Shown here: positions 789 to 9,711 of the stretch, in pieces
How positions within the stretch are numbered: position 1 is the stretch's first letter
Layout of the letters: each line of letters starts with the position of its first letter
NCBI GenBank assembly: GCA_020049615.1
Contig: JAIFKN010000265.1
Coordinates: forward strand, 1 to 9,737
Length of the DNA: 9,737 nucleotides
Direction of reading: 5' to 3'
DNA from: a bacterium
GTDB taxonomy: Bacteria; Planctomycetota; UBA11346
Translations under genes and position numbers: made by a program
Notes under the pieces: generated by a model
Seen by the model: the letters and a program-made list of their open reading frames with translations, nothing else
Told to the model about the DNA's origin: nothing
The model's database searches: none

Positions 789-2993
789 TCAGACGACGGG
801 CTCCAGCCGCCAGAGGTGGCAGGTCAGCGGCGAGGTGCGCAGTTCGACCGCCTGCGTGGCGGTTTCGGCGACCCAGCGGCCCTCCCACAGGTCCCACACC
901 CGGGCGGGCCGGCGCAGCCGCACCGTCCGCACGGGGGCCGCTCCGGCGTAGAGACCGAGGAAGCGGTCGTTGGCGTAGACCAGGTCGCCGGGCGGGGCGT
1001 AGGCGTGCGCGCCGCATGCCGCGGCGAAGGCCGCCAGCTGGGTCTCGGGCAGAAGCGGGCCAGCGTTGAACAGGCTGGGGAAGCCCAGGCGGTCCGTGCG
1101 GACCAGCGCCGCCTCGCCGCCATCGTCCCACACCGCCAGGGTGCGGTCGCCCGGGCCAGGCGCCAGGGCCAGCCGCGGCGCGGTGGCGAAGGCCGCCGCC
1201 GGCGGATAGCCGCGCATCAGCGGTTCGTACTCGGCGCGCAAGGTGCCGGTGCCGTAGCACGGGCCGTCCCGGCCGACCACGCGGCAGGTCCAGTCGCCCG
1301 CCGCCGGCGCGGTCCAGCGGGCCGACACGCCGGTGAGCCCGGCCACGGCGTCCAACCCGTCCTGCGCCCCCGGCCACAGCGTCCACAAGGCGCCGCAGTC
1401 CGTGGCCCGCAGACGCGCATGGATCCGTGCACGGCGTGCGGAGTCGCAACGGAACAGGTTGACGAAGCTGGCGAGCTTCGCCGCCGGCCAGTCCCGGGCG
1501 AGGAAGTCGTCCAGGGTGGTCTGCGTCCACGGCGCACCCGAGCGCAGCAGATGCCACTGCTTCTGCACCGGGAAGAGCGGGACCGCCAGCGCCGTGCCCG
1601 GCGTGGTCCAGCGCAGGCTCTCCTCGTCCACGATCAGCAACTGCTCGGCCAGCGGTCGGCGCCGCAGGCCGGGCTCGGCGCGCGCGATGGCCTGCAGCCG
1701 CGCCAACGCGTCGGCCAGCTCGGGCCGGGCGAAGGCGCCGCCGAAGAGGTCGACCCAGGACTGCTCCTGGCCGCTGCCCAGGGCGGCGGCGAAGTCGCGT
1801 TTCATCAGCTCCACCGCCTCGGCCGCCGTGCGCGGCACGCGGATGTAGGACTGCCAGCCGTGCCGGTCCTCGGCCACCTTGATGTCGACCGAATGGATGA
1901 AGAGCTTGCCGTGGTCGGCCGCCGCGTCGGCGGGCGCCTGCGCGCTGCTGGCCCCGCCCAGGCCGCGATTGGTGTAGTCGAGCGGACTGGCGAGGAAGTC
2001 GACGTCGGCCGACTCCAGCACGCGCTGCAGGGCGAGGTGGCCGGCGCGCGCCGGCCCGAGGACGTCCTTCTGGCTCCACCAGTAGCCGTAGAAGCCCCCG
2101 ACCAGCCGCCGGCCGGGGAGGGCGGCCTTGGCGGCGCGGCACAGGCCGAGGAAGCAATCCACCTGGGCGTCGGACTGCGCCGCGACGAGATCCGCCGCCG
2201 GGGCCTGCCGCACCGGGTCGAGCAGCGGGTGGGCGTCGGCGGCGGGCCGCTGCGCGGGTTCCGGAAGCTCGACCACGTCGAAGCCGGCGATGGGCCGCCC
2301 CCACGCCGCAGCGAGATGCTCGACCGTGCCGTAGCGGGTGCGCAGCCAGCGCCGGAACCAGTCCCGCATCGGCACGCTGTAGTCGAACAGCACCTCGTCG
2401 GTGTAGGTGCCCCAGCCGAGCCATTCGTAGGACAGGCCGCCGCAGATGTAGTAGCCGAGGAAGCGGCCCGGGAAGCGCTCCTCGAGGTGGCGCAGCAGGG
2501 CCTGCAGGGCGGCGCAGGCCTCGGTCAGCCAGACGGCGGAGGCGAAGGAGTGGACGCAGGGTGGCTGCTGGTGGTGACGGTCGAAGTTGTCGAGAGCGGG
2601 ATCCGGGCGGTCGTCCGGCGAGGCTGGACGCGGCACGGCGGGGTGCCCGCCAGGGAAGGCGCCCGGTACGCGCGGCAACGGCAGGGCCCGTTCCTGCGCA
2701 TGGAGCAGCTCCCACCACTTCGTCTCCGGCCCGTCCATCCACAGCAGCGGAAACAGGCGGACGTCGGGTCCGGCGGCGCAGAAGGCCTCCACCGCCGCGT
2801 CGGTCTCGCGGTAGTCGTACTGGCCGGGGCCGCTCCAGCCGATGGGCAGCGAGAGGCGGAAGACACGGACGCCGGCGCGCACGAACTCGGCGAGGTGCTC
2901 GCGGTAGGTGTAGGCCATGACGCCTTCGAACGGCGCGCCGTCGAGGAACAGCCGCGGCGTGCCGTCGACGGTGCGGATCGCGACCTCGTCCAT
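789..2993 (-). CDS. GH42-like clan GH-A glycoside hydrolase (beta-galactosidase-like), probably cytoplasmic
   Basis: A 734-residue protein with three apparent parts. The first 400 or so residues look like a TIM barrel. The segment at 215-232 ([16 protein letters not shown]) closely matches the GH42 'YG....LN.AWG' signature. SYEWLGWG at 188-195 puts Glu 190 where the acid/base Glu would be expected. [18 protein letters not shown] at 330-347 and [10 protein letters not shown] at 361-370 follow patterns I know from PVC-type beta-galactosidase-like proteins; the nucleophile is not certain. Residues about 445-640 resemble the GATase-like trimerisation domain of GH42, with FVNLFRCD (510-517) and GALWTLWPG (534-542). 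A small beta-rich C-terminal domain contains [15 protein letters not shown] (670-684). The N-terminus is polar with no signal peptide, so the enzyme probably acts on imported oligosaccharides. The start ATG has no Shine-Dalgarno sequence in front of it. It is divergent from the pseudopilin gene, with a palindromic site between. The exact GH family (42 or a relative) and substrate are not settled. Confidence 0.75.
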
Positions 2994-3002
2994 GCCCGGA
3001 CG

Positions 3003-3008
3003 ATGGTA
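3003..3008 (-). promoter_or_regulatory. weak -10-like hexamer for the GH42-like gene
   Basis: Reading on the minus strand the hexamer is TACCAT, matching TATAAT at four of six positions. It ends 9 nt before the ATG, so transcription from it would give a leader of only 2-3 nt, that is, a nearly leaderless mRNA, which fits the missing Shine-Dalgarno sequence. Its distance to the palindrome centre (about 47 bp) equals that of the opposite promoter. Picked by eye in short sequence, so weak evidence. Confidence 0.25.
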
Positions 3009-3048
3009 GGATCTTCATCTTCGCCAAGATGCTGGCCGGAACCAAGGT

Positions 3049-3062
3049 TGCTGAATTCAGCA
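3049..3062. promoter_or_regulatory. 14-bp perfect palindrome, candidate operator (copy A)
   Basis: The sequence TGCTGAATTCAGCA is its own reverse complement over all 14 bases; symmetry stops at the next base pair. It sits near the middle of the 135-bp gap between the divergent GH42-like and pseudopilin genes, 55 bp from the first start codon and 66 bp from the second. An AT-centred palindrome is conspicuous in this GC-rich DNA. An almost identical palindrome lies in the other divergent gap at 6694-6707. The symmetry is what a homodimeric regulator would bind; the regulator family cannot be named from the site. Confidence 0.65.
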
Positions 3063-3084
3063 GACCGCAGCCGAGCGACTGGTG

Positions 3085-3102
3085 CCAGCAGACGAATGCT
3101 GG
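3085..3102. promoter_or_regulatory. inverted repeat CCAGCA-N6-TGCTGG abutting a -10 element
   Basis: Two 6-bp arms, 3085-3090 and 3097-3102, are perfect reverse complements around a 6-nt spacer. The repeat ends at the base before the -10-like TATATT, so it fills the spacer between -10 and any -35 of the pseudopilin promoter. It reuses the TGCTG/CAGCA half-sites of the 3049-3062 palindrome but with the opposite relative orientation. Position is typical for a repressor site; function is inferred only. Confidence 0.4.
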
Positions 3103-3108
3103 TATATT
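3103..3108 (+). promoter_or_regulatory. -10-like TATATT of the pseudopilin promoter
   Basis: TATATT matches the bacterial -10 consensus at five of six positions and stands out in GC-rich surroundings. It would start transcription near 3115 and give a leader of about 14 nt. No acceptable -35 hexamer is present 16-18 bp upstream (TGGTGC at 3080-3085), which suggests activator dependence. The palindrome centred at 3055.5 would then sit at about -60. Confidence 0.45.
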
Positions 3109-3114
3109 GCACGC

Positions 3115-3120
3115 GGGGAG
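3115..3120 (+). promoter_or_regulatory. ribosome binding site of the pseudopilin gene
   Basis: GGGGAG with 8 nt to the ATG at 3129 is a good Shine-Dalgarno match. It decides for the start at 3129 over an in-frame ATG at 3096, which has no such site and overlaps the promoter. Confidence 0.6.
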
Positions 3121-3128
3121 TCAGGCGC

Positions 3129-3929
3129 ATGCACCGCTCACGACAGGCTCCGGACGCAGGCGGCTTCAGCCTCATCGAGCTGCTGGTCGTCGTCGCCATC
3201 ATCGGCGTGCTGTCGGCACTGCTGCTCCCGGGCGTGCAGATGGTCAAGACCGCGGCCCGCTCCTCGGTGTGCCAGAGCAACCTGCGGCAGATCGGCGTCG
3301 CCGTCCTGGCCTACGCCCAGGACTGGGACGGGATGCTGGTGCCGGCCCGCGGCTACGCCGTGACCAGCCAGATCTACTGGAGCCAGAATCTCGCGCCATA
3401 CGTGCGTACGGGCGAGGACGCCGATTCCGTTGCCGGGACCGCCCGCGATGCGACCTCGGTGCTCAACCGCTGCCCGGAGTGGCGGCGGCTGAGCGACGGC
3501 GTCGTGCGTCTGGCGGCCAACAGCGACCCCTCGGTCGGCTATGGGCTCACCAACGAGCCGCACCGGCCCTACGATGCCACCGCGTACAAGATCAACGCGG
3601 ACTGGAGGCCTGGCTACTCGGTGCTGGCGCCCCCGGTCCCCGGCGGCAGCGACCTGTACCGTGTCTTCAGCCTCGGCTCCATCACCAAGCAGTCGAAGCG
3701 CATCATCGCCGGCGACTACAGCCGCTACACCTTCGGGCAGCTGGTGTGGAGCATGTCGACGTTCGATGCCAACAAGGACGGACCGGCCAGCAACGGGACG
3801 CCGGGGTTCGGCACGCGGCGGCACAGTGGCCGCTCCAACTGGCTGTTCGCCGACTTGCGCGTCGCGCCACTGGCGGTGCCGCAGGTCCGCCAGAGCTACT
3901 CTGACCCGTCGCTGCTCAAGCTGGAGTGA
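3129..3929 (+). CDS. pseudopilin / prepilin-like protein, H-X9-DG class (variant motif)
   Basis: A 266-residue protein with a type III (prepilin) signal. A short basic leader ends in Gly12, then [20 protein letters not shown] forms the methylation site and hydrophobic helix, with Glu17 at the conserved +5 position after the expected cut between Gly12 and Phe13. The next segment, [19 protein letters not shown] (50-68), is typical of the large pseudopilin families of PVC bacteria and Armatimonadota. The C-terminal hallmark H-X9-D-G is present as [15 protein letters not shown]: His232 and Asp242 have the right spacing but the usual Gly is Leu. After processing by a prepilin peptidase it should sit in the inner membrane or assemble into a pseudopilus. 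No pilus assembly genes are visible nearby. It stands between glycosidase genes and shares a divergent promoter region with one, so a link to enzyme secretion or substrate attachment is plausible but inferred. Confidence 0.9.
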
Positions 3930-3946
3930 GTGGCCACCAGCGAATC

Positions 3947-3975
3947 ACGGCCTCGTCTGACTGACGCCAGGCCGT
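3947..3975 (+). terminator. strong hairpin after the pseudopilin gene, likely terminator without U-tract
   Basis: Arms 3947-3957 (ACGGCCT followed by CGTC) and 3963-3975 (GACG, two unpaired C, AGGCCGT) form an 11-bp stem with a TGACT loop and a 2-nt bulge. It begins 18 nt after the pseudopilin stop and lies in the gap between convergent genes. No run of T follows on either strand, so it is not a classical intrinsic terminator; it may act as a U-less terminator or protect mRNA 3' ends. Confidence 0.5.
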
Positions 3976-4000
3976 AGCGGCGGAAGCGCACCAGGTAGGA

Positions 4001-4016
4001 CGGTGATCGATCACCG
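4001..4016. terminator. 16-bp perfect palindrome between convergent genes, possible bidirectional terminator or binding site
   Basis: CGGTGATCGATCACCG is perfectly self-complementary over 16 bases. As RNA it gives a 6-bp stem with a UCGA loop on either strand. It lies 4 nt beyond the stop of the minus-strand GH9 gene, the right place for its terminator, but no T-run follows. A protein-binding site is the alternative. It does not share the GAATTC core of the two promoter palindromes. Confidence 0.4.
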
Positions 4017-4020
4017 CGGT

Positions 4021-6642
4021 TCACGGCAGGTGCCAGCGCCCGAAGAGGTGCGACGGATGACGCGGACCGGGGGGCGGGCCGGGAGGCTGCCAGCCGTCGG
4101 GGACGAGGATGCCGGCGGTCAGGGCCGCAGCCGCCATCGTCTCCCAGACGGTGAATTCGCACTGCGCCGTGTTCAGCTGCGAATGTTGCGACCAGCGCCG
4201 CCATACCGGGATGGTGCCTGGGTCGGCGACCGCAGGCATGCCGGGGGCGCCGTCCGCACCGGGCAGCGCAGCGCGCCAGACCTGCTCGCGCAAGGCACCG
4301 AAGAATCCGTCGGTCACCCCGTAGATGGTGAGGCCGGGAACCGGGTCGTCGATGCCGTCGTTCTCGCTGCTCCAGTGCTGGATCACCGCCGGATAGGCGC
4401 AGCCGAGTCCGGTGGTCCACGACAGGCCGAGCGGGTTGGCCCCGAGCATGGCGGCGGCATTGGCGAGGATGGCGCGCCGGAAACCCGGGTCGGGGTCGAG
4501 CGTCTCGGCGATCCACAGCGCCCGGTTGGCGTTGTACATGCAGGTCGCGCCCCAACCCATCCAGTAGTCCTTGTCCCGCTTCCACGACATGCGGTAGGGC
4601 ATGGTCTCGACCAGGCCGGCCAGCTCGCGGGCCGGCAGGACCAGGCGCTCGGCGAGGGTGCGGCCGAGCTCGGCCGGGAGGCGGGCGCGCAGCGCCGCCA
4701 GGCGTTCGGCGGGCACGCCCGGCAGACTGGCCGCGCCGGCCGCCGGCGTCGCCAGCAGCTGGACGAAGTAGCCGGAGTGGTCGCGCGTGCTCCAGGGCCA
4801 TTCATAGGGTTTGGGCGCGCGCGCCGCCAGCTCGGCGAGGCGCGCGAGATAGGCCTCGTCGCCGGTCGCCAGCCAGAGCTGCTGGCGGGCGAGCAGCTCG
4901 TACGGCTCGCTCATCGCGTCGGTCTCCTCCCAGGCGACCTCATAGGCGGCCCCGCGCCCGCGCTCGCGCTTGGCGGGGATGGCGATACGCCCCAGGCTGT
5001 TCGCCGGATCGCCGCCCCAGGCGAAGGCGCGACGCGATGCCTCCAGGTAGCGCTGGGCCAGCGCCGGCGCGGTGGCGGTGGCATGGCGGGCGTACCACGC
5101 CGCGGCTGCGGCGAAAATCAGGCTGGAGAAGCGGGTACGCCGCGAGAAGGCGTAACGGGCGGCTGGATCGTCGCCGCGGTAGTGGCTGTTCGCCTCGATC
5201 ATGCCCGACACCGCCCCGGCGGCGTCCTGGCTGGCGAGCCAGCAGCGCAGGCCGAACTCGATCTCGTCGAGCACGTCTGGCACCCCGTTGCCGCTTTCCG
5301 GGATCGCCAGCTGGCGGTCGGGAAAGGCGCCCGGACGCCGGTCGAGCAGGGCGAGCTGGTCGAAGGCGATGGTGTAATGCGCCAGGTTGCGATCCCAGTC
5401 CGCGGCGTCGTAGTAGCCGCCGACGACCTCGGGCGTCGAGCGGCTGGCGTCGAGCGTCGCACCGATGACATCGAAACGCTCGTAGCCCTTGGGGCCGCCG
5501 AGACCGCCGGCTCCGAAGGGGATGTGCAGGGACTCGTAGACCGGATCGGTGTGCAGCCGCGGCCGGGTCCAGGCGGTGCAGGCCCGCTCGAGGGCGCTGC
5601 TGCCGCGCTGCTGGAAAAACCCGCGCATGGTCGTGTACCACGCCTCGCCGTAGACGTCGTCGGCGATGCGGATCGGCCACGAGCAGCCGAACCCCTCGAC
5701 CACGAGGACGTAGCTGCCTGGCTGCGACACCGCGGAGAAGTCGGCCTCGAACAGCCGTTCACCGGTGATCAGCGGCCGCTTCGCCGGATCATCCTGCTTG
5801 TCCGGGCGCGGCGCGCAGCGGGCGGCGTCATCGCGCAGCGCGCAGACCCCGGCGGCGGACTCCCGCCCCGCCTGGTCGAGCAGGCGCCAGCGCGGCCGGT
5901 CGGGGATCGGCAGCGGGCCGACGCCAGGAATCCAGGCGCCGAGGTAGGCGACCTTGAGCGGATCGCCACTGCGGTAGCCGACCTGGTTGACCTTGATCGC
6001 CGAGGACCGCGTACGCTGGGGTTCGTAGCGGATGGCGCACGAGCGCGGCCCCGCCGGCGCCTCCAGGGCGATGCGATAGGTCCGCCCCGCCTGCATCGCC
6101 GTAGGCAGCTCGAGGTAGGTCTGGCAGCCATGCAGGATGCGCGGCGTGCCGTCGTGGTCGCCGCCCTGGCCCAGGCTGATGGGCAGTCCGGCGATGCGCA
6201 GCGGGGTGATCGGCGCGGCATAGCGGGGATCGTCCGGGCTGGACACGCGCCAGGATCCGGCCACGGCCAACGCCGTCTCGCCGGCCGCCGCGCGCGCCGC
6301 CGGCCACAGCCGGTCGCGCAGTTCGTGCATCCGCTTGCGCGCACCCCAATTCGGCTTGCCGCCCTTTTCCGAGGCCACCCACGCGTCGATCGCGGCCTGG
6401 TAGGTCCCATCGCTGAGCCGCTCGACCTCGGCGCGGATGCGCGGCGTCAGATCGATGCCGATCACCACCCAGCGGTCGGAGAGGACGTGCACGGCATCGA
6501 TGCCCTGCAGCTCCCCGGCGACCGGCGCCACCGGCAGGCCGAAGCGCACGAATGGCGGCGGCGCCTCGCCGGCGGGCAGCAGTGCGATGGCGAATAGCAG
6601 GAGGCCCAGCGGCAGGCGCGGAGCAGGCGTGCGAGAAAACAT
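4021..6642 (-). CDS. secreted GH9 family glycoside hydrolase with long N-terminal extension
   Basis: An 873-residue protein. MFSRTPAPRLPLGLLLFAIALL (1-22) followed by PAGEA is a clear signal peptide and fixes the start at this ATG; the frame stays open upstream to a GTG at 6714, but that would bury the signal peptide and the palindrome inside the gene. Residues about 30-210 are an extension I do not recognise, part helical (65-120) and part beta-like. Residues 213-330 form the Ig-like domain usual before GH9 barrels, with SSAIKVNQVGYRSGDPLKVAYLG. The catalytic barrel follows: GGYYDAADWD (408-417) carries the Asp412/Asp415 pair, then IPESGNGVPDVLDEIEFGL (447-465), then MLGANPLGLSWTTGLG (732-747). 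Glu829 in QCEFTVWE is the likely general acid, without the canonical preceding Asn. It ends in a Pro-rich tail with no dockerin or CBM. It acts outside the cytoplasm on a beta-glucan-like polymer; exact substrate unknown. There is no Shine-Dalgarno sequence before the ATG. Confidence 0.9.
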   Translation of the reverse strand: MFSRTPAPRLPLGLLLFAIALLPAGEAPPPFVRFGLPVAPVAGELQGIDAVHVLSDRWVVIGIDLTPRIRAEVERLSDGTYQAAIDAWVASEKGGKPNWGARKRMHELRDRLWPAARAAAGETALAVAGSWRVSSPDDPRYAAPITPLRIAGLPISLGQGGDHDGTPRILHGCQTYLELPTAMQAGRTYRIALEAPAGPRSCAIRYEPQRTRSSAIKVNQVGYRSGDPLKVAYLGAWIPGVGPLPIPDRPRWRLLDQAGRESAAGVCALRDDAARCAPRPDKQDDPAKRPLITGERLFEADFSAVSQPGSYVLVVEGFGCSWPIRIADDVYGEAWYTTMRGFFQQRGSSALERACTAWTRPRLHTDPVYESLHIPFGAGGLGGPKGYERFDVIGATLDASRSTPEVVGGYYDAADWDRNLAHYTIAFDQLALLDRRPGAFPDRQLAIPESGNGVPDVLDEIEFGLRCWLASQDAAGAVSGMIEANSHYRGDDPAARYAFSRRTRFSSLIFAAAAAWYARHATATAPALAQRYLEASRRAFAWGGDPANSLGRIAIPAKRERGRGAAYEVAWEETDAMSEPYELLARQQLWLATGDEAYLARLAELAARAPKPYEWPWSTRDHSGYFVQLLATPAAGAASLPGVPAERLAALRARLPAELGRTLAERLVLPARELAGLVETMPYRMSWKRDKDYWMGWGATCMYNANRALWIAETLDPDPGFRRAILANAAAMLGANPLGLSWTTGLGCAYPAVIQHWSSENDGIDDPVPGLTIYGVTDGFFGALREQVWRAALPGADGAPGMPAVADPGTIPVWRRWSQHSQLNTAQCEFTVWETMAAAALTAGILVPDGWQPPGPPPGPRHPSHLFGRWHLP

Positions 6643-6648
6643 GCCGCC

Positions 6649-6654
6649 ATGATG
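6649..6654 (-). promoter_or_regulatory. weak -10-like hexamer for the minus-strand GH9 gene
   Basis: On the minus strand it reads CATCAT, four of six matches to TATAAT, ending 6 nt before the ATG. Transcription from it would start at or next to the A of the start codon, giving a leaderless mRNA in line with the missing Shine-Dalgarno sequence. The palindrome centre is about 46 bp upstream. Low-information match chosen by eye. Confidence 0.2.
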
Positions 6655-6693
6655 GCCGGCGTCGCGCGGGCGCCACGGCCGGCACCCAGGGGG

Positions 6694-6707
6694 TGATGAA
6701 TTCATCA
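6694..6707. promoter_or_regulatory. 14-bp perfect palindrome, candidate operator (copy B)
   Basis: TGATGAATTCATCA is perfectly self-complementary over 14 bases. It equals the 3049-3062 palindrome except for the symmetric positions 3 and 12, giving the joint pattern TGMTGAATTCAKCA. It lies in the 135-bp gap between the two divergent GH9 genes, 51 bp from the minus-strand start and 70 bp from the plus-strand start. Two other GAATTC hexamers in the window (4153-4158 and 9237-9242) are inside coding sequence and extend to only 6 and 8 symmetric bases, so the 14-bp symmetry belongs to the promoter regions. Confidence 0.65.
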
Positions 6708-6741
6708 GCGACACGGATAGACCTCGGGTGCAACCACAGGC

Positions 6742-6767
6742 CTTCCGCTATGCTGCGGCAGCGGAAG
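6742..6767. promoter_or_regulatory. 8-bp inverted repeat over the -10 region of the plus-strand GH9 gene
   Basis: CTTCCGCT (6742-6749) and AGCGGAAG (6760-6767) are exact reverse complements around a 10-nt spacer. The spacer region contains the -10-like TATGCT (6749-6754, four of six matches), and the right arm touches the Shine-Dalgarno sequence. As DNA this is placed like a repressor site; if the transcript starts further upstream, it would be a hairpin next to the ribosome binding site. No convincing -35 hexamer is present. From this -10 the start point would be near 6761, putting the 6694-6707 palindrome at about -60. Confidence 0.4.
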
Positions 6768-6772
6768 AGGAG
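6767..6772 (+). promoter_or_regulatory. ribosome binding site of the plus-strand GH9 gene
   Basis: GAGGAG with 5 nt to the ATG at 6778 is a strong Shine-Dalgarno match and supports that start. The signal peptide begins directly at this Met. Confidence 0.65.
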
Positions 6773-6777
6773 ACCAC

Positions 6778-9711
6778 ATGCGCTGCATCTTCAGCCTCGC
6801 CTTGCTCGCCACCCTGCTCGGGGCGGGCGAGCCGGTCCATCTCGACCTCGGCCCGGCGCTGAATACCGCCGCGGTCGATGACGGCATCCCCGGCAACGGG
6901 CAGGGCGGGTGGACGGACGAGGGCATCAACGACATGTTCACCTACCCGCCGCCGGCCCCCGGCGTGCAGGAGGTCAACGGCGTGCGTTTCCGTCTCGCCG
7001 ACCCGGCGCAACACGGAGGACGCGCTGCCGCCGTGCTGCGCGGGCACCGCATGCCCGGGGCGCCGGCCTCGCTCGAGATCGCCGGCGGCGGGGCCGTCGG
7101 CCGCTTCGTCTACCTCGTCCTGCATGGCATCTCCAGGCCGGAGGGCCTGGCCAAGGAGGCGGTGGTGGCGACCTGGCGCCTCGACTACGCCGACGGCAGC
7201 AGCGCCAGCGGTGAGCTGCGCAGCGGGCGGGAGGTCCGGCACTGGTGGGCCGGGGCGTGGTGGGACAACAGCGGCGCCGAGGCCTGGCCGGTGCTCATGG
7301 GCCAGAACCCCTACACCGCCAAGTGGGGCAGCTGGATCGGGCTGTGGGCGACGCGCCTGGAGCATCCGCACCCGCAGCGGCCTATCGCCAAGCTGACCCT
7401 CACCTCGCTCGGCACCGTCGCCATCGCGGTGTGGGCCGCGACCGTCGACGAACGCGATTACGCCAGCGTGCTCGGCGAGGGCTTCAAGCTCAGCCGGCCG
7501 CCGGGCGCGCCGGCCGGCTACTTCGACGAGCGGCTCGCGATCGAGAACCGCCAGGTCGGCAATGAGATGCGCCGCCTGGGACTGACCCGCGGGGTGCGGT
7601 CGCTGGAGGTGATCCGGCCGGATCTGCTGGCCGTGACCATCGACGCGGCGGTGTCCGATGGTCCCGGTCCCGGCGCCGCCGCGGCAGCGGCCCTGCAGAC
7701 GCCCGAGCGCTTCGCCGTGACGGGCCGTGAGCCGCTGCGCGTCGAACGCGTCGGCCGCCAGTCCATCCTGCACGAGACCGCCGACGCCGGGATCTTCCCC
7801 AGCAACCACATCCACTGGCACACCTACTTCCTGCGCCTGTCGCGAGCGCTGGCGCCGGGTGAGACCGCCCGCGTCGCGGTAGCCGGGCTGCCCCAGGGCT
7901 GCGTCGCCAGCAGCGAGGTCGTCTTCGACCCCGCCGCCACGATCTCGCCGGCGATCAAGGTCAACCAGGGCGCCTACGCGCCGGGCCGCCGCCGCTTCGC
8001 CTATATCGGCTGGTGGGCCGGCGATCTCGGCCAGGTCGATTTCGCCGACTGCACCGCCTACGAGGTGGTGTCCGAGGCCGACCGCAGCGTCGTCCTGGCC
8101 GGGGCGGTCGCCGCCCGCCGCGCCACCGAGCAGAGCAAGCGTCCGCCGGCTCCTGATGGGCACGACCCGATCAGCGGCGAACTGGTGCGCGAGATCGAGC
8201 TGTCGGCGCTGCCGCCCGGGCGCTACCACCTGCGCGTGCCGGGCCTCGGCCGGTCCTGGCCGTTCGCCGTCGGTGGCGAGGCCCAGCGCGGCCTGGCGCT
8301 GACCCTGCTGCGCGGCCTGTTGCACCAGCGCTGCGGCTGCGAGCTGACCCCGGCCATCACCGCCTATCCCCGGCCGGCCTGCCATGTGGCGGTCTACGAA
8401 CACGGGCATCTTGTCGGCGGACTGATGGAACACCGGGTCGACGGCGTCCTGACCGTGGCCAACCCGCCCCTGCGGCCCGACGAACCGATCCGCCGCTTCC
8501 ACGGCGGCTACCACGATGCCGCCGACTTCGACCTCTTCGCCGGCCATCTCCAGGGCGCCGCCCGCCTGCTCGACGCCTACGAGGCCGCGCCGGCGGCGTG
8601 GGCCGCCGACGACCTCGGCCTGCCCGAGAGCGGCAACGGCGTGCCCGACCTGCTCGACGAGGTGCTGTGGGGGATCAGCTTCTATGCCGCCCATCAGCAG
8701 GCGGACGGCGGCATCCCGGCCGGGCGCGGCAACGACGAGGACTACCAGCGCAAGGAGTGGCAGCACGAGGGCGCGCCGCAGCATGGCGCGAATCCGCCCT
8801 TCGGCGTGTTCCCGCCGACGCGCTCCTCCACCGCCACCTTCGCCGCCGCGGCGGCGCAGCTGGCGCGGGCGCTCGCCCCGCACGACGCCAAGCGGGCGGC
8901 AGACCTGCTCGCCCAGGCCGAACGGGCCTGGGTCTGGGCCGCAGCCGACACCACCGACGCCTACCGCAACGCGGGCGTGGCCTACGCCGCGCTCAGCTGG
9001 CCGCGGACCCTGTTCTGGGCCGCCGCCGAGCTGTGGGAGGGCACCGGTGCCGAGCGCTACCGCCGCCATCTCGAGGAGCACCGCGAGGATCCGCAGATCT
9101 GGCGCAGCACCTGGAAGGATGCCGCCATCATCCCGCTGCTGCACTGGAGCGTGGCGAAGGTCCAGCGCCCGGGCCTGCCGGCCGGCATGCAGGATGCGGC
9201 CAAGGCCGCCATCCTTGCCGCCGCCAGCGGGGCGCGGAATTCCATCGAACGCCCGTCCTACCGCCTCAGCGCACGCCCCGACGGGGCTGGCGGCTGGGGC
9301 TCATTGGCCGGCGGCGCCGAACCGGGCACCCTCCTGCTGCTGGCCTGGCGGCTGACCGGCGACGCGGCGTGGCTGGATGCGGCCTCGTTGGGCGCCGACT
9401 ACCAGCTCGGCTGCAACCCGCTCGGCCGCAGCTTCATCAGCAGGATCGGCGCGCACCCGCCGGAGCGTCCGCAGTTGCGGCCGTGGCTCTACGACGCCGA
9501 CCGCCGGCCGTCGCCAGGCGTGCCCATCTACGGCCCGGGCGGCGGACCCAAGGCCATGCGCGACCCGTATCCGGCGGAGGTCCCGCCGTGGCGCTGCTAC
9601 CAGGACAACGCCTCGTCCTCGACCATCCACAGCGAGTTCGACGTCGTGCGCCAGCAGGGCATGGCCGCGTTCTACGCCATGCTGTGGGGCGCCGCCGCCG
9701 GCGGGAAATGA
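6778..9711 (+). CDS. secreted GH9 family glycoside hydrolase with large N-terminal accessory region
   Basis: A 977-residue protein. Residues 1-17 (MRCIFSLALLATLLGAG) look like a short signal peptide. Residues about 18-225 start VHLDLGPALNTAAVDDG, with GGWTDEGINDMF (43-54) and VNGVRFRLADP (67-76), a beta-rich accessory domain pattern I know from PVC glycosidases and possibly carbohydrate binding. Residues 226-385 are a second accessory stretch I do not recognise. SPAIKVNQGAYAPGRRRFAYIG (390-411) opens the Ig-like domain, which runs to about 498. The GH9 barrel then shows GGYHDAADFD (576-585) with the catalytic pair Asp580/Asp583, LPESGNGVPDLLDEVLWGI (615-633), LGCNPLGRSF (877-886), GPGGGP (919-924), and Glu953 in IHSEFDV as probable general acid. 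Like the neighbouring minus-strand enzyme it has EF after the position where most GH9 enzymes have Asn-Glu. It shares a promoter region with that divergent GH9 gene. Extracytoplasmic; beta-glucan-like substrate inferred from family only. Confidence 0.9.
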   Translation: MRCIFSLALLATLLGAGEPVHLDLGPALNTAAVDDGIPGNGQGGWTDEGINDMFTYPPPAPGVQEVNGVRFRLADPAQHGGRAAAVLRGHRMPGAPASLEIAGGGAVGRFVYLVLHGISRPEGLAKEAVVATWRLDYADGSSASGELRSGREVRHWWAGAWWDNSGAEAWPVLMGQNPYTAKWGSWIGLWATRLEHPHPQRPIAKLTLTSLGTVAIAVWAATVDERDYASVLGEGFKLSRPPGAPAGYFDERLAIENRQVGNEMRRLGLTRGVRSLEVIRPDLLAVTIDAAVSDGPGPGAAAAAALQTPERFAVTGREPLRVERVGRQSILHETADAGIFPSNHIHWHTYFLRLSRALAPGETARVAVAGLPQGCVASSEVVFDPAATISPAIKVNQGAYAPGRRRFAYIGWWAGDLGQVDFADCTAYEVVSEADRSVVLAGAVAARRATEQSKRPPAPDGHDPISGELVREIELSALPPGRYHLRVPGLGRSWPFAVGGEAQRGLALTLLRGLLHQRCGCELTPAITAYPRPACHVAVYEHGHLVGGLMEHRVDGVLTVANPPLRPDEPIRRFHGGYHDAADFDLFAGHLQGAARLLDAYEAAPAAWAADDLGLPESGNGVPDLLDEVLWGISFYAAHQQADGGIPAGRGNDEDYQRKEWQHEGAPQHGANPPFGVFPPTRSSTATFAAAAAQLARALAPHDAKRAADLLAQAERAWVWAAADTTDAYRNAGVAYAALSWPRTLFWAAAELWEGTGAERYRRHLEEHREDPQIWRSTWKDAAIIPLLHWSVAKVQRPGLPAGMQDAAKAAILAAASGARNSIERPSYRLSARPDGAGGWGSLAGGAEPGTLLLLAWRLTGDAAWLDAASLGADYQLGCNPLGRSFISRIGAHPPERPQLRPWLYDADRRPSPGVPIYGPGGGPKAMRDPYPAEVPPWRCYQDNASSSTIHSEFDVVRQQGMAAFYAMLWGAAAGGK

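What the first reader, a model, noticed from the sequence alone, without database searches (positions are those of the whole stretch)
3049..6707. Two near-identical 14-bp palindromes mark both divergent promoter regions: a shared operator for a glycan-degradation regulon
TGCTGAATTCAGCA (3049-3062) and TGATGAATTCATCA (6694-6707) are each perfectly symmetric over 14 bp and differ only at one symmetric pair of positions. They occur only in the two divergent intergenic gaps. The other two GAATTC hexamers noticed are inside genes and lack the extended symmetry. A compensated change that keeps perfect symmetry is what selection by a dimeric DNA-binding protein leaves behind. This would tie two GH9 enzymes, the GH42-like enzyme and the pseudopilin to one regulator that is not in the window.
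Basis: partly seen in the sequence, partly recalled or inferred. Interest (0 to 1): 0.85.

Follow-up and report, generated by a model that had tools for sequence, protein, structure and literature searches.

The report
Shared switch between cellulase gene pairs
Two almost identical 14-letter mirror-image DNA sites sit near the middle between back-to-back gene pairs that include sugar-polymer-degrading enzymes, probably a landing pad for one unidentified regulatory protein; this is a familiar kind of gene switch, but its even spacing to four putative promoters is unusually neat.

Summary
TGCTGAATTCAGCA (3049-3062) and TGATGAATTCATCA (6694-6707) are perfect 14-bp palindromes, differ by one compensated pair, and are the window's only matches to TGNTGAATTCANCA within two mismatches (0.03 expected). 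They lie in its two divergent gaps, both 135 bp and otherwise dissimilar, so promoter duplication is unlikely. A new feature emerged: in all four arms the only match of at least 4 of 6 to TATAAT lies 46.5-48.5 bp from the palindrome centre (0 of 200,000 shuffles, 3 of 60,000 Markov sequences). That puts the centre near -60 of each inferred start, close to the class I activator position. Best reading: one dimeric regulator, more likely an activator than a simple repressor, controls both gene pairs. The regulon claim is untested: no genome is held for this window and the closest relatives' DNA was out of reach. In 455 genomes of two phyla the motif is sparse; 26 of 28 exact copies examined lie in predicted coding DNA; 0 of 11 distant GH9 homologues examined has such a palindrome upstream. 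The regulator and its family are unknown. A new member of a known kind.

The parts
3049..3062 (.). palindrome 1, TGCTGAATTCAGCA: candidate operator, centre 3055.5, between GH42-like(-) and pseudopilin(+)
6694..6707 (.). palindrome 2, TGATGAATTCATCA: candidate operator, centre 6700.5, between GH9b(-) and GH9c(+)
3003..3008 (-). -10-like hexamer TACCAT of GH42-like gene, 47.5 bp from palindrome centre (inferred)
3103..3108 (+). -10-like hexamer TATATT of pseudopilin, 47.5 bp from palindrome centre (inferred)
6649..6654 (-). -10-like hexamer CATCAT of GH9b, 46.5 bp from palindrome centre (inferred; weakest of the four)
6749..6754 (+). -10-like hexamer TATGCT of GH9c, 48.5 bp from palindrome centre (inferred)
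789..2993 (-). GH42-like protein, 734 aa (PF02449 at 20.9 bits, cut-off 21)
3129..3929 (+). pseudopilin-like protein, 266 aa (PF07963 N_methyl and PF07596 DUF1559)
4021..6642 (-). GH9b, 873 aa (PF00759 and PF02927)
6778..9711 (+). GH9c, 977 aa (PF00759 and PF02927)

Best explanation
The two palindromes are operators for one homodimeric transcription factor encoded outside this contig. One dimer binds near the middle of each 135-bp divergent gap, about -60 from the start points of both flanking promoters. From there it most likely contacts RNA polymerase on each side (class I-like activation) and switches the GH42-like/pseudopilin pair and the GH9b/GH9c pair on together, presumably in response to a glycan-derived signal. 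Shown here: the sequences, their rarity in the window, their placement, and the nearly common distance to four -10-like hexamers. Inferred: that a protein binds, that it is one protein, that the hexamers are promoters, that it activates, and what signal it senses.
For: Two exact matches against 0.03 expected at up to two mismatches. Expected number of matching palindromes in a 135-bp gap 4.5e-6. The gaps show no similarity outside the 14-mers: best local score 18, 622 of 2000 shuffles as good. In each of the four arms the single TATAAT match of at least 4 of 6 lies 46.5-48.5 bp from the centre: 0 of 200,000 mononucleotide shuffles, 3 of 60,000 Markov-1 sequences. A threshold-free score gives 0 of 40,000 at window widths 3, 4 and 5, and 4 of 40,000 at width 2. 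CRP at class I promoters sits at -61.5, or -60.5 with a consensus RNAP site (passages of PMC2859248, and PMC6301791). With the usual -12 to -7 placing of the -10 box (general knowledge), these sites would be at -58.5 to -60.5. A CAZyme precedent for the operator idea is CelR in actinobacteria: palindromes upstream of glycoside hydrolases, with related 14-bp palindromes changed at one base per half-site (passages of PMC3377646).
Against: Only two sites, and no transcript or binding data. At window width 1 the -10 coincidence is not significant (3239 of 40,000), so the register is shared only to within 2 bp; CRP activation at class I promoters falls off within a base pair or so (fold activation 9.05 at -61.5, 3.85 at -60.5, table in PMC6301791). 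CATCAT in GH9b is a poor -10; without that arm the score is reached in 11 (width 2) and 23 (width 3) of 40,000 shuffles. I saw the spacing in the two plus arms before I tested all four. The scan for whole sigma-70 promoters found 0 where 0.3 is expected by chance, so it neither supports nor excludes promoters. The motif is sparse in 455 genomes of two phyla and absent upstream of the 11 distant GH9 homologues examined. No regulator gene was found.
Confidence: 0.6

Rival explanations
1. The palindromes are operators of a repressor of the LacI/CelR kind that blocks both promoters until a sugar is sensed.
For: CelR of Thermobifida fusca is a LacI-family regulator of cellulases; its palindromic sites lie upstream of glycoside hydrolases, and relatives carry compensated variants (passages of PMC3377646). 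[quoted passage not shown] TG...CA ends as in CelR-type palindromes.
Against: Of 1251 LacI-family TFs with even palindromes in that study (16, 18, 20 or 22 nt long), 1173 have a central CG pair and 49 another pair; here the centre is AT and the symmetry spans 14 nt. A single site near -60 of both inferred promoters is far upstream for simple steric repression (general knowledge).
Confidence: 0.22
2. The palindromes act as RNA hairpins (5-bp stem, AAUU loop) in 5' untranslated regions, and the compensated change keeps the stem.
For: Both fold as TGNTG/CANCA stems with a 4-nt loop, -5.1 and -3.1 kcal/mol.
Against: A hairpin loop need not be self-complementary, yet AATT is in both. The inferred starts lie downstream of the palindrome on both sides. 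No Rfam family reaches its gathering score in the window. The hairpins are weak.
Confidence: 0.04
3. Chance, or a repeat unrelated to regulation (mobile-element end, restriction site, chromosome-organisation site), that happens to lie in both gaps.
For: The pattern was picked after seeing the sequence. Elsewhere the same 14-mers lie mostly in predicted genes (26 of 28 examined). GAATTC as such is over-represented in the window (4 against 0.50 expected).
Against: (background: 2 of 85 divergent gaps hold a palindrome of 14 bp or more). No similarity outside the core. The nearly common distance to -10-like hexamers.
Confidence: 0.1

Closest known systems
CelR/CebR cellulase operators of actinobacteria (LacI family)
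   Same: 14-bp palindromes with TG...CA ends, upstream of glycoside hydrolases; [quoted passage not shown] The CelR site TGGGAGCGCTCCCA itself is recalled; as a search term it occurs in three papers of the listing, which I did not open.
   Different: Central AT in place of CG and a different half-site; here centred between divergent genes about 47 bp from each -10-like box; no regulator gene on the contig; host lineage unknown.
Class I CRP/FNR-type activator sites
   Same: Dimer site centred near -60 of the inferred start (CRP: -61.5; PMC2859248 and PMC6301791 passages). The 5-4-5 dyad resembles the FNR site TTGAT-N4-ATCAA (recalled).
   Different: The half-site TGNTG is neither the CRP nor the FNR half-site (recalled); here one site would serve two promoters; starts are inferred; no regulator identified.

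Membership tests
LacI-family operator (CelR type) | even palindrome with central CG pair (1173 of 1251 TFs, PMC4052901) | tested here: not met
   centre is AATT in both sites; 49 of those TFs have another central pair, so this does not exclude it
LacI-family operator (CelR type) | recognised by a LacI-family protein of the same organism | not testable with these tools
   no home genome is held; the Pfam matches of the window's five proteins show no regulator
LacI-family operator (CelR type) | multiple copies upstream of glycoside hydrolases in the home genome | tested here: inconclusive
   2 sites beside four genes in 9.7 kb; rest of the genome not held
[quoted passage not shown]
   centre 46.5-48.5 bp from four -10-like hexamers; transcript starts not mapped
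CRP/FNR site | half-sites TGTGA (CRP) or TTGAT (FNR), recalled | tested here: not met
   half-site is TGNTG
IclR-family site | consensus GKTYCRYW3-4RYGRAMC or TGRAACAN1-2TGTTYCA (PMC8222616 passages) | tested here: not met
   TGCTGAATTCAGCA and TGATGAATTCATCA fit neither (compared by eye)

The most novel reading that the evidence does not exclude
One dimeric activator, with a half-site that I could match to no family, binds near the middle between two divergent promoters and drives both at the same near -60 geometry, repeated at two loci. It so ties a DUF1559 pseudopilin to GH9/GH42-type glycan degradation in a high-GC lineage without a held genome. The minus-side genes would be leaderless or nearly so, the plus-side genes Shine-Dalgarno-led.
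Probability: 0.3. Interest if true: 0.55.

Novelty: new member of a known kind. Interest (0 to 1): 0.36.

Why it matters
DUF1559 pseudopilins are common in uncultured bacteria (3095 proteins related to this one at E <= 0.001 among 7025 candidates) and I know of no settled role for them. A shared operator would be evidence that one of them belongs to a polysaccharide-degradation programme. The symmetric design gives a simple, testable promoter model for a lineage without a held genome.

Tried and rejected
Whole-genome enrichment in the home genome: not possible, no genome held. tblastn of the window's GH42-like protein and pseudopilin against the 87 loci then held: no hit at 1e-5. The closest proteins, P0002 (80%), P0003 (68%) and P0155 (56%), were available only as proteins; P0003 and P0155 list a longest contig of the same length (24,259), which I take to be one contig. 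G157 holds a 61% GH42-like orthologue (no other at 1e-100 in the 17 genomes of its order), but its contig begins 73 bp before the match (about 55 bp before the start codon), too short to show the palindrome. G157 has 23 sites with at most one mismatch; of the 15 given as loci, 13 overlap an ORF of 150 aa or more. GH9b searches in groups that I name from the titles of the loci that gave the handles: Planctomycetota 1 of 343 and its class 1 of 29 at 1e-60 (both the known G005), Armatimonadota 20 of 291 at 1e-40, class of G157 13 of 268 at 1e-60, none closer than 44%. Viral contigs: 7 distant GH9 loci, nothing for pseudopilin or GH42-like. Papers holding either 14-mer: one, on pig cells, seen in the listing only. 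Papers with pseudopilin, Lentisphaerae and glycoside hydrolase, or prepilin-type N-terminal cleavage, Lentisphaer and polysaccharide: none in that library. Promoter duplication as the source of the two sites: rejected (the masked test was flawed because masked letters matched each other). Consensus sigma-70 promoters in 2900-6900: none found, 0.3 expected.
Full report
What is there. The window is 9737 bases; the protein search lists 9737 as the longest contig for the window's own proteins (P0001, P0121, P0154), so it is probably a whole metagenome contig. The pseudopilin is listed on 2 contigs, of which 9737 is the longer. No genome is held for the window. It encodes a partial GH9 (3-788, +), a GH42-like protein (789-2993, -), a DUF1559/N-methylation pseudopilin (3129-3929, +), GH9b (4021-6642, -) and GH9c (6778-9711, +). 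The GH42 assignment is borderline (20.9 bits, cut-off 21). There are two divergent gaps, 2994-3128 and 6643-6777, each 135 bp, with 60% and 68% GC against 73% in the genes.

A 14-bp palindrome alone is not rare: the window has 8 of 14 bp or more, three of them between genes. What is rare is two almost identical ones in the two divergent gaps. Markov simulations give P = 0.012 (gap 1, 400,000 runs) and 0.016 (gap 2, 100,000 runs) for any 14-bp palindrome, and with independent bases the expected number of palindromes equal to the first or changed at one half-site position is 4.5e-6 per gap. In 82 loci of at least 6 kb, 2 of 85 divergent gaps of 60-400 bp (14,662 bp) held one of 14 bp or more, one of these an A/T run (simple ORF calling). 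The palindromes are not left over from a duplicated promoter: with the cores masked, the best local alignment of the gaps scores no better than shuffles (622 of 2000 as good).

A further regularity. The palindrome centre is 62.5 and 73.5 bp from the start codons in gap 1, and 58.5 and 77.5 bp in gap 2. I then looked for -10 boxes. I first noticed TATATT and TATGCT on the plus side by eye, then scanned all four arms. In every arm there is exactly one match of at least 4 of 6 to TATAAT: TACCAT at 47.5 bp (GH42-like), TATATT at 47.5 (pseudopilin), CATCAT at 46.5 (GH9b), TATGCT at 48.5 (GH9c). TANNNT occurs in three of the four arms, once each, at those places, and not in the GH9b arm. A common 3-bp window occurred in 0 of 200,000 mononucleotide shuffles and 3 of 60,000 Markov-1 sequences. 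A threshold-free score gave 3239, 4, 0, 0 and 0 of 40,000 shuffles at widths 1 to 5; without the GH9b arm it gave 11 (width 2) and 23 (width 3) of 40,000. So the distance is shared to within 2 bp, not exactly.

What it suggests. If the hexamers are -10 boxes at -12 to -7, each palindrome centre is 58.5-60.5 bp upstream of the transcript starts. CRP at class I promoters acts from -61.5 (passages of PMC2859248), or -60.5 with a consensus polymerase site (passages of PMC6301791). One dimer on a symmetric site midway between two promoters could touch polymerase on both sides. A repressor that simply blocks polymerase would be expected closer in (general knowledge). The scan for whole sigma-70 promoters found none where 0.3 is expected, which says little. 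On the minus side the -10-like hexamer ends 9 nt (GH42-like) or 6 nt (GH9b) before ATG and I see no Shine-Dalgarno sequence. That is like the leaderless genes of Deinococcus, whose -10 motif lies about 6-7 bp upstream of the ORF (passages of PMC12340547). The plus-side genes have purine-rich stretches at the usual place (read from the sequence).

Tests against other organisms. In 387 genomes drawn from G157's phylum the exact pattern occurs in 132, with at most 6 copies per genome; in the 68 genomes of G004's phylum, in 17, with at most 3. I classified the 28 places in those two listings that bear exactly one of the two 14-mers (the listing is capped, so there are more): 26 of 28 are inside predicted ORFs, 2 are between tandem genes, none is in a divergent gap. 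By hand, 31 of the 76 plus-strand sites listed are fully symmetric; I made no test of that number. Upstream of GH9b homologues, 0 of 11 examined loci had a palindrome of 12 bp or more from about 260 bp before the projected start up to the match; 4 of the 11 had one of 10 bp, unlike this motif (these are 11 that I chose of the 87 loci then held: the seven closest bacterial ones, one more, and three from viral contigs; 28-42% identical). 1 of 87 GH9-relative loci (L075) has an exact match anywhere, not followed up. So the motif is not a widely shared operator. This does not speak against a lineage-specific one, because all these relatives are distant.

Which protein. No regulator is seen in the window. 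The site resembles CelR-type operators of actinobacteria in length, TG...CA ends and position before glycoside hydrolases, and the variation at one base per half-site has a parallel there (passages of PMC3377646). But LacI-family even palindromes nearly always have a central CG (1173 of 1251; passage of PMC4052901) and this one has AT. It fits neither IclR consensus (passages of PMC8222616). Its 5-4-5 dyad is like FNR or LexA sites (recalled) but the half-site differs. I leave the family open.

Verdict. A real, non-random pair of operator-like sites with a repeated promoter geometry; most likely one regulator for both gene pairs, activator more likely than repressor. The wider glycan regulon remains an untested extrapolation. 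As a kind of thing it is ordinary; the symmetric geometry and the pseudopilin link give it some interest.

Noticed in passing
window 4001-4016: A third perfect palindrome, CGGTGATCGATCACCG, in the convergent gap between the pseudopilin and GH9b stop codons; could be a weak bidirectional terminator hairpin (-6.9 kcal/mol) without a T run.
   Followed up: partly
window 2993-3008 and 6640-6654: GH42-like and GH9b lack a visible Shine-Dalgarno sequence and have a -10-like hexamer 9 and 6 nt before ATG: possibly leaderless genes, opposite Shine-Dalgarno-led partners.
   Followed up: partly
window 789-2993: The GH42-like protein is just below Pfam's GH42 cut-off and has no NCBIfam match at 0.001, yet relatives of up to 62% identity exist: a little-described family.
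   Followed up: no
window 3129-3929: Among the 120 listed matches of the pseudopilin (of 3095), besides its own entry only P0155 and P0156 exceed 50% identity over most of its length.
   Followed up: no
window 3034-3064 and 6677-6709: Left of the two palindromes an unmasked alignment pairs GGCCGG-ACC stretches; outside the core the gaps are no more alike than shuffles.
   Followed up: yes
listing: 31 of 76 listed plus-strand matches are symmetric at the N positions, perhaps more than chance; not tested.
   Followed up: no
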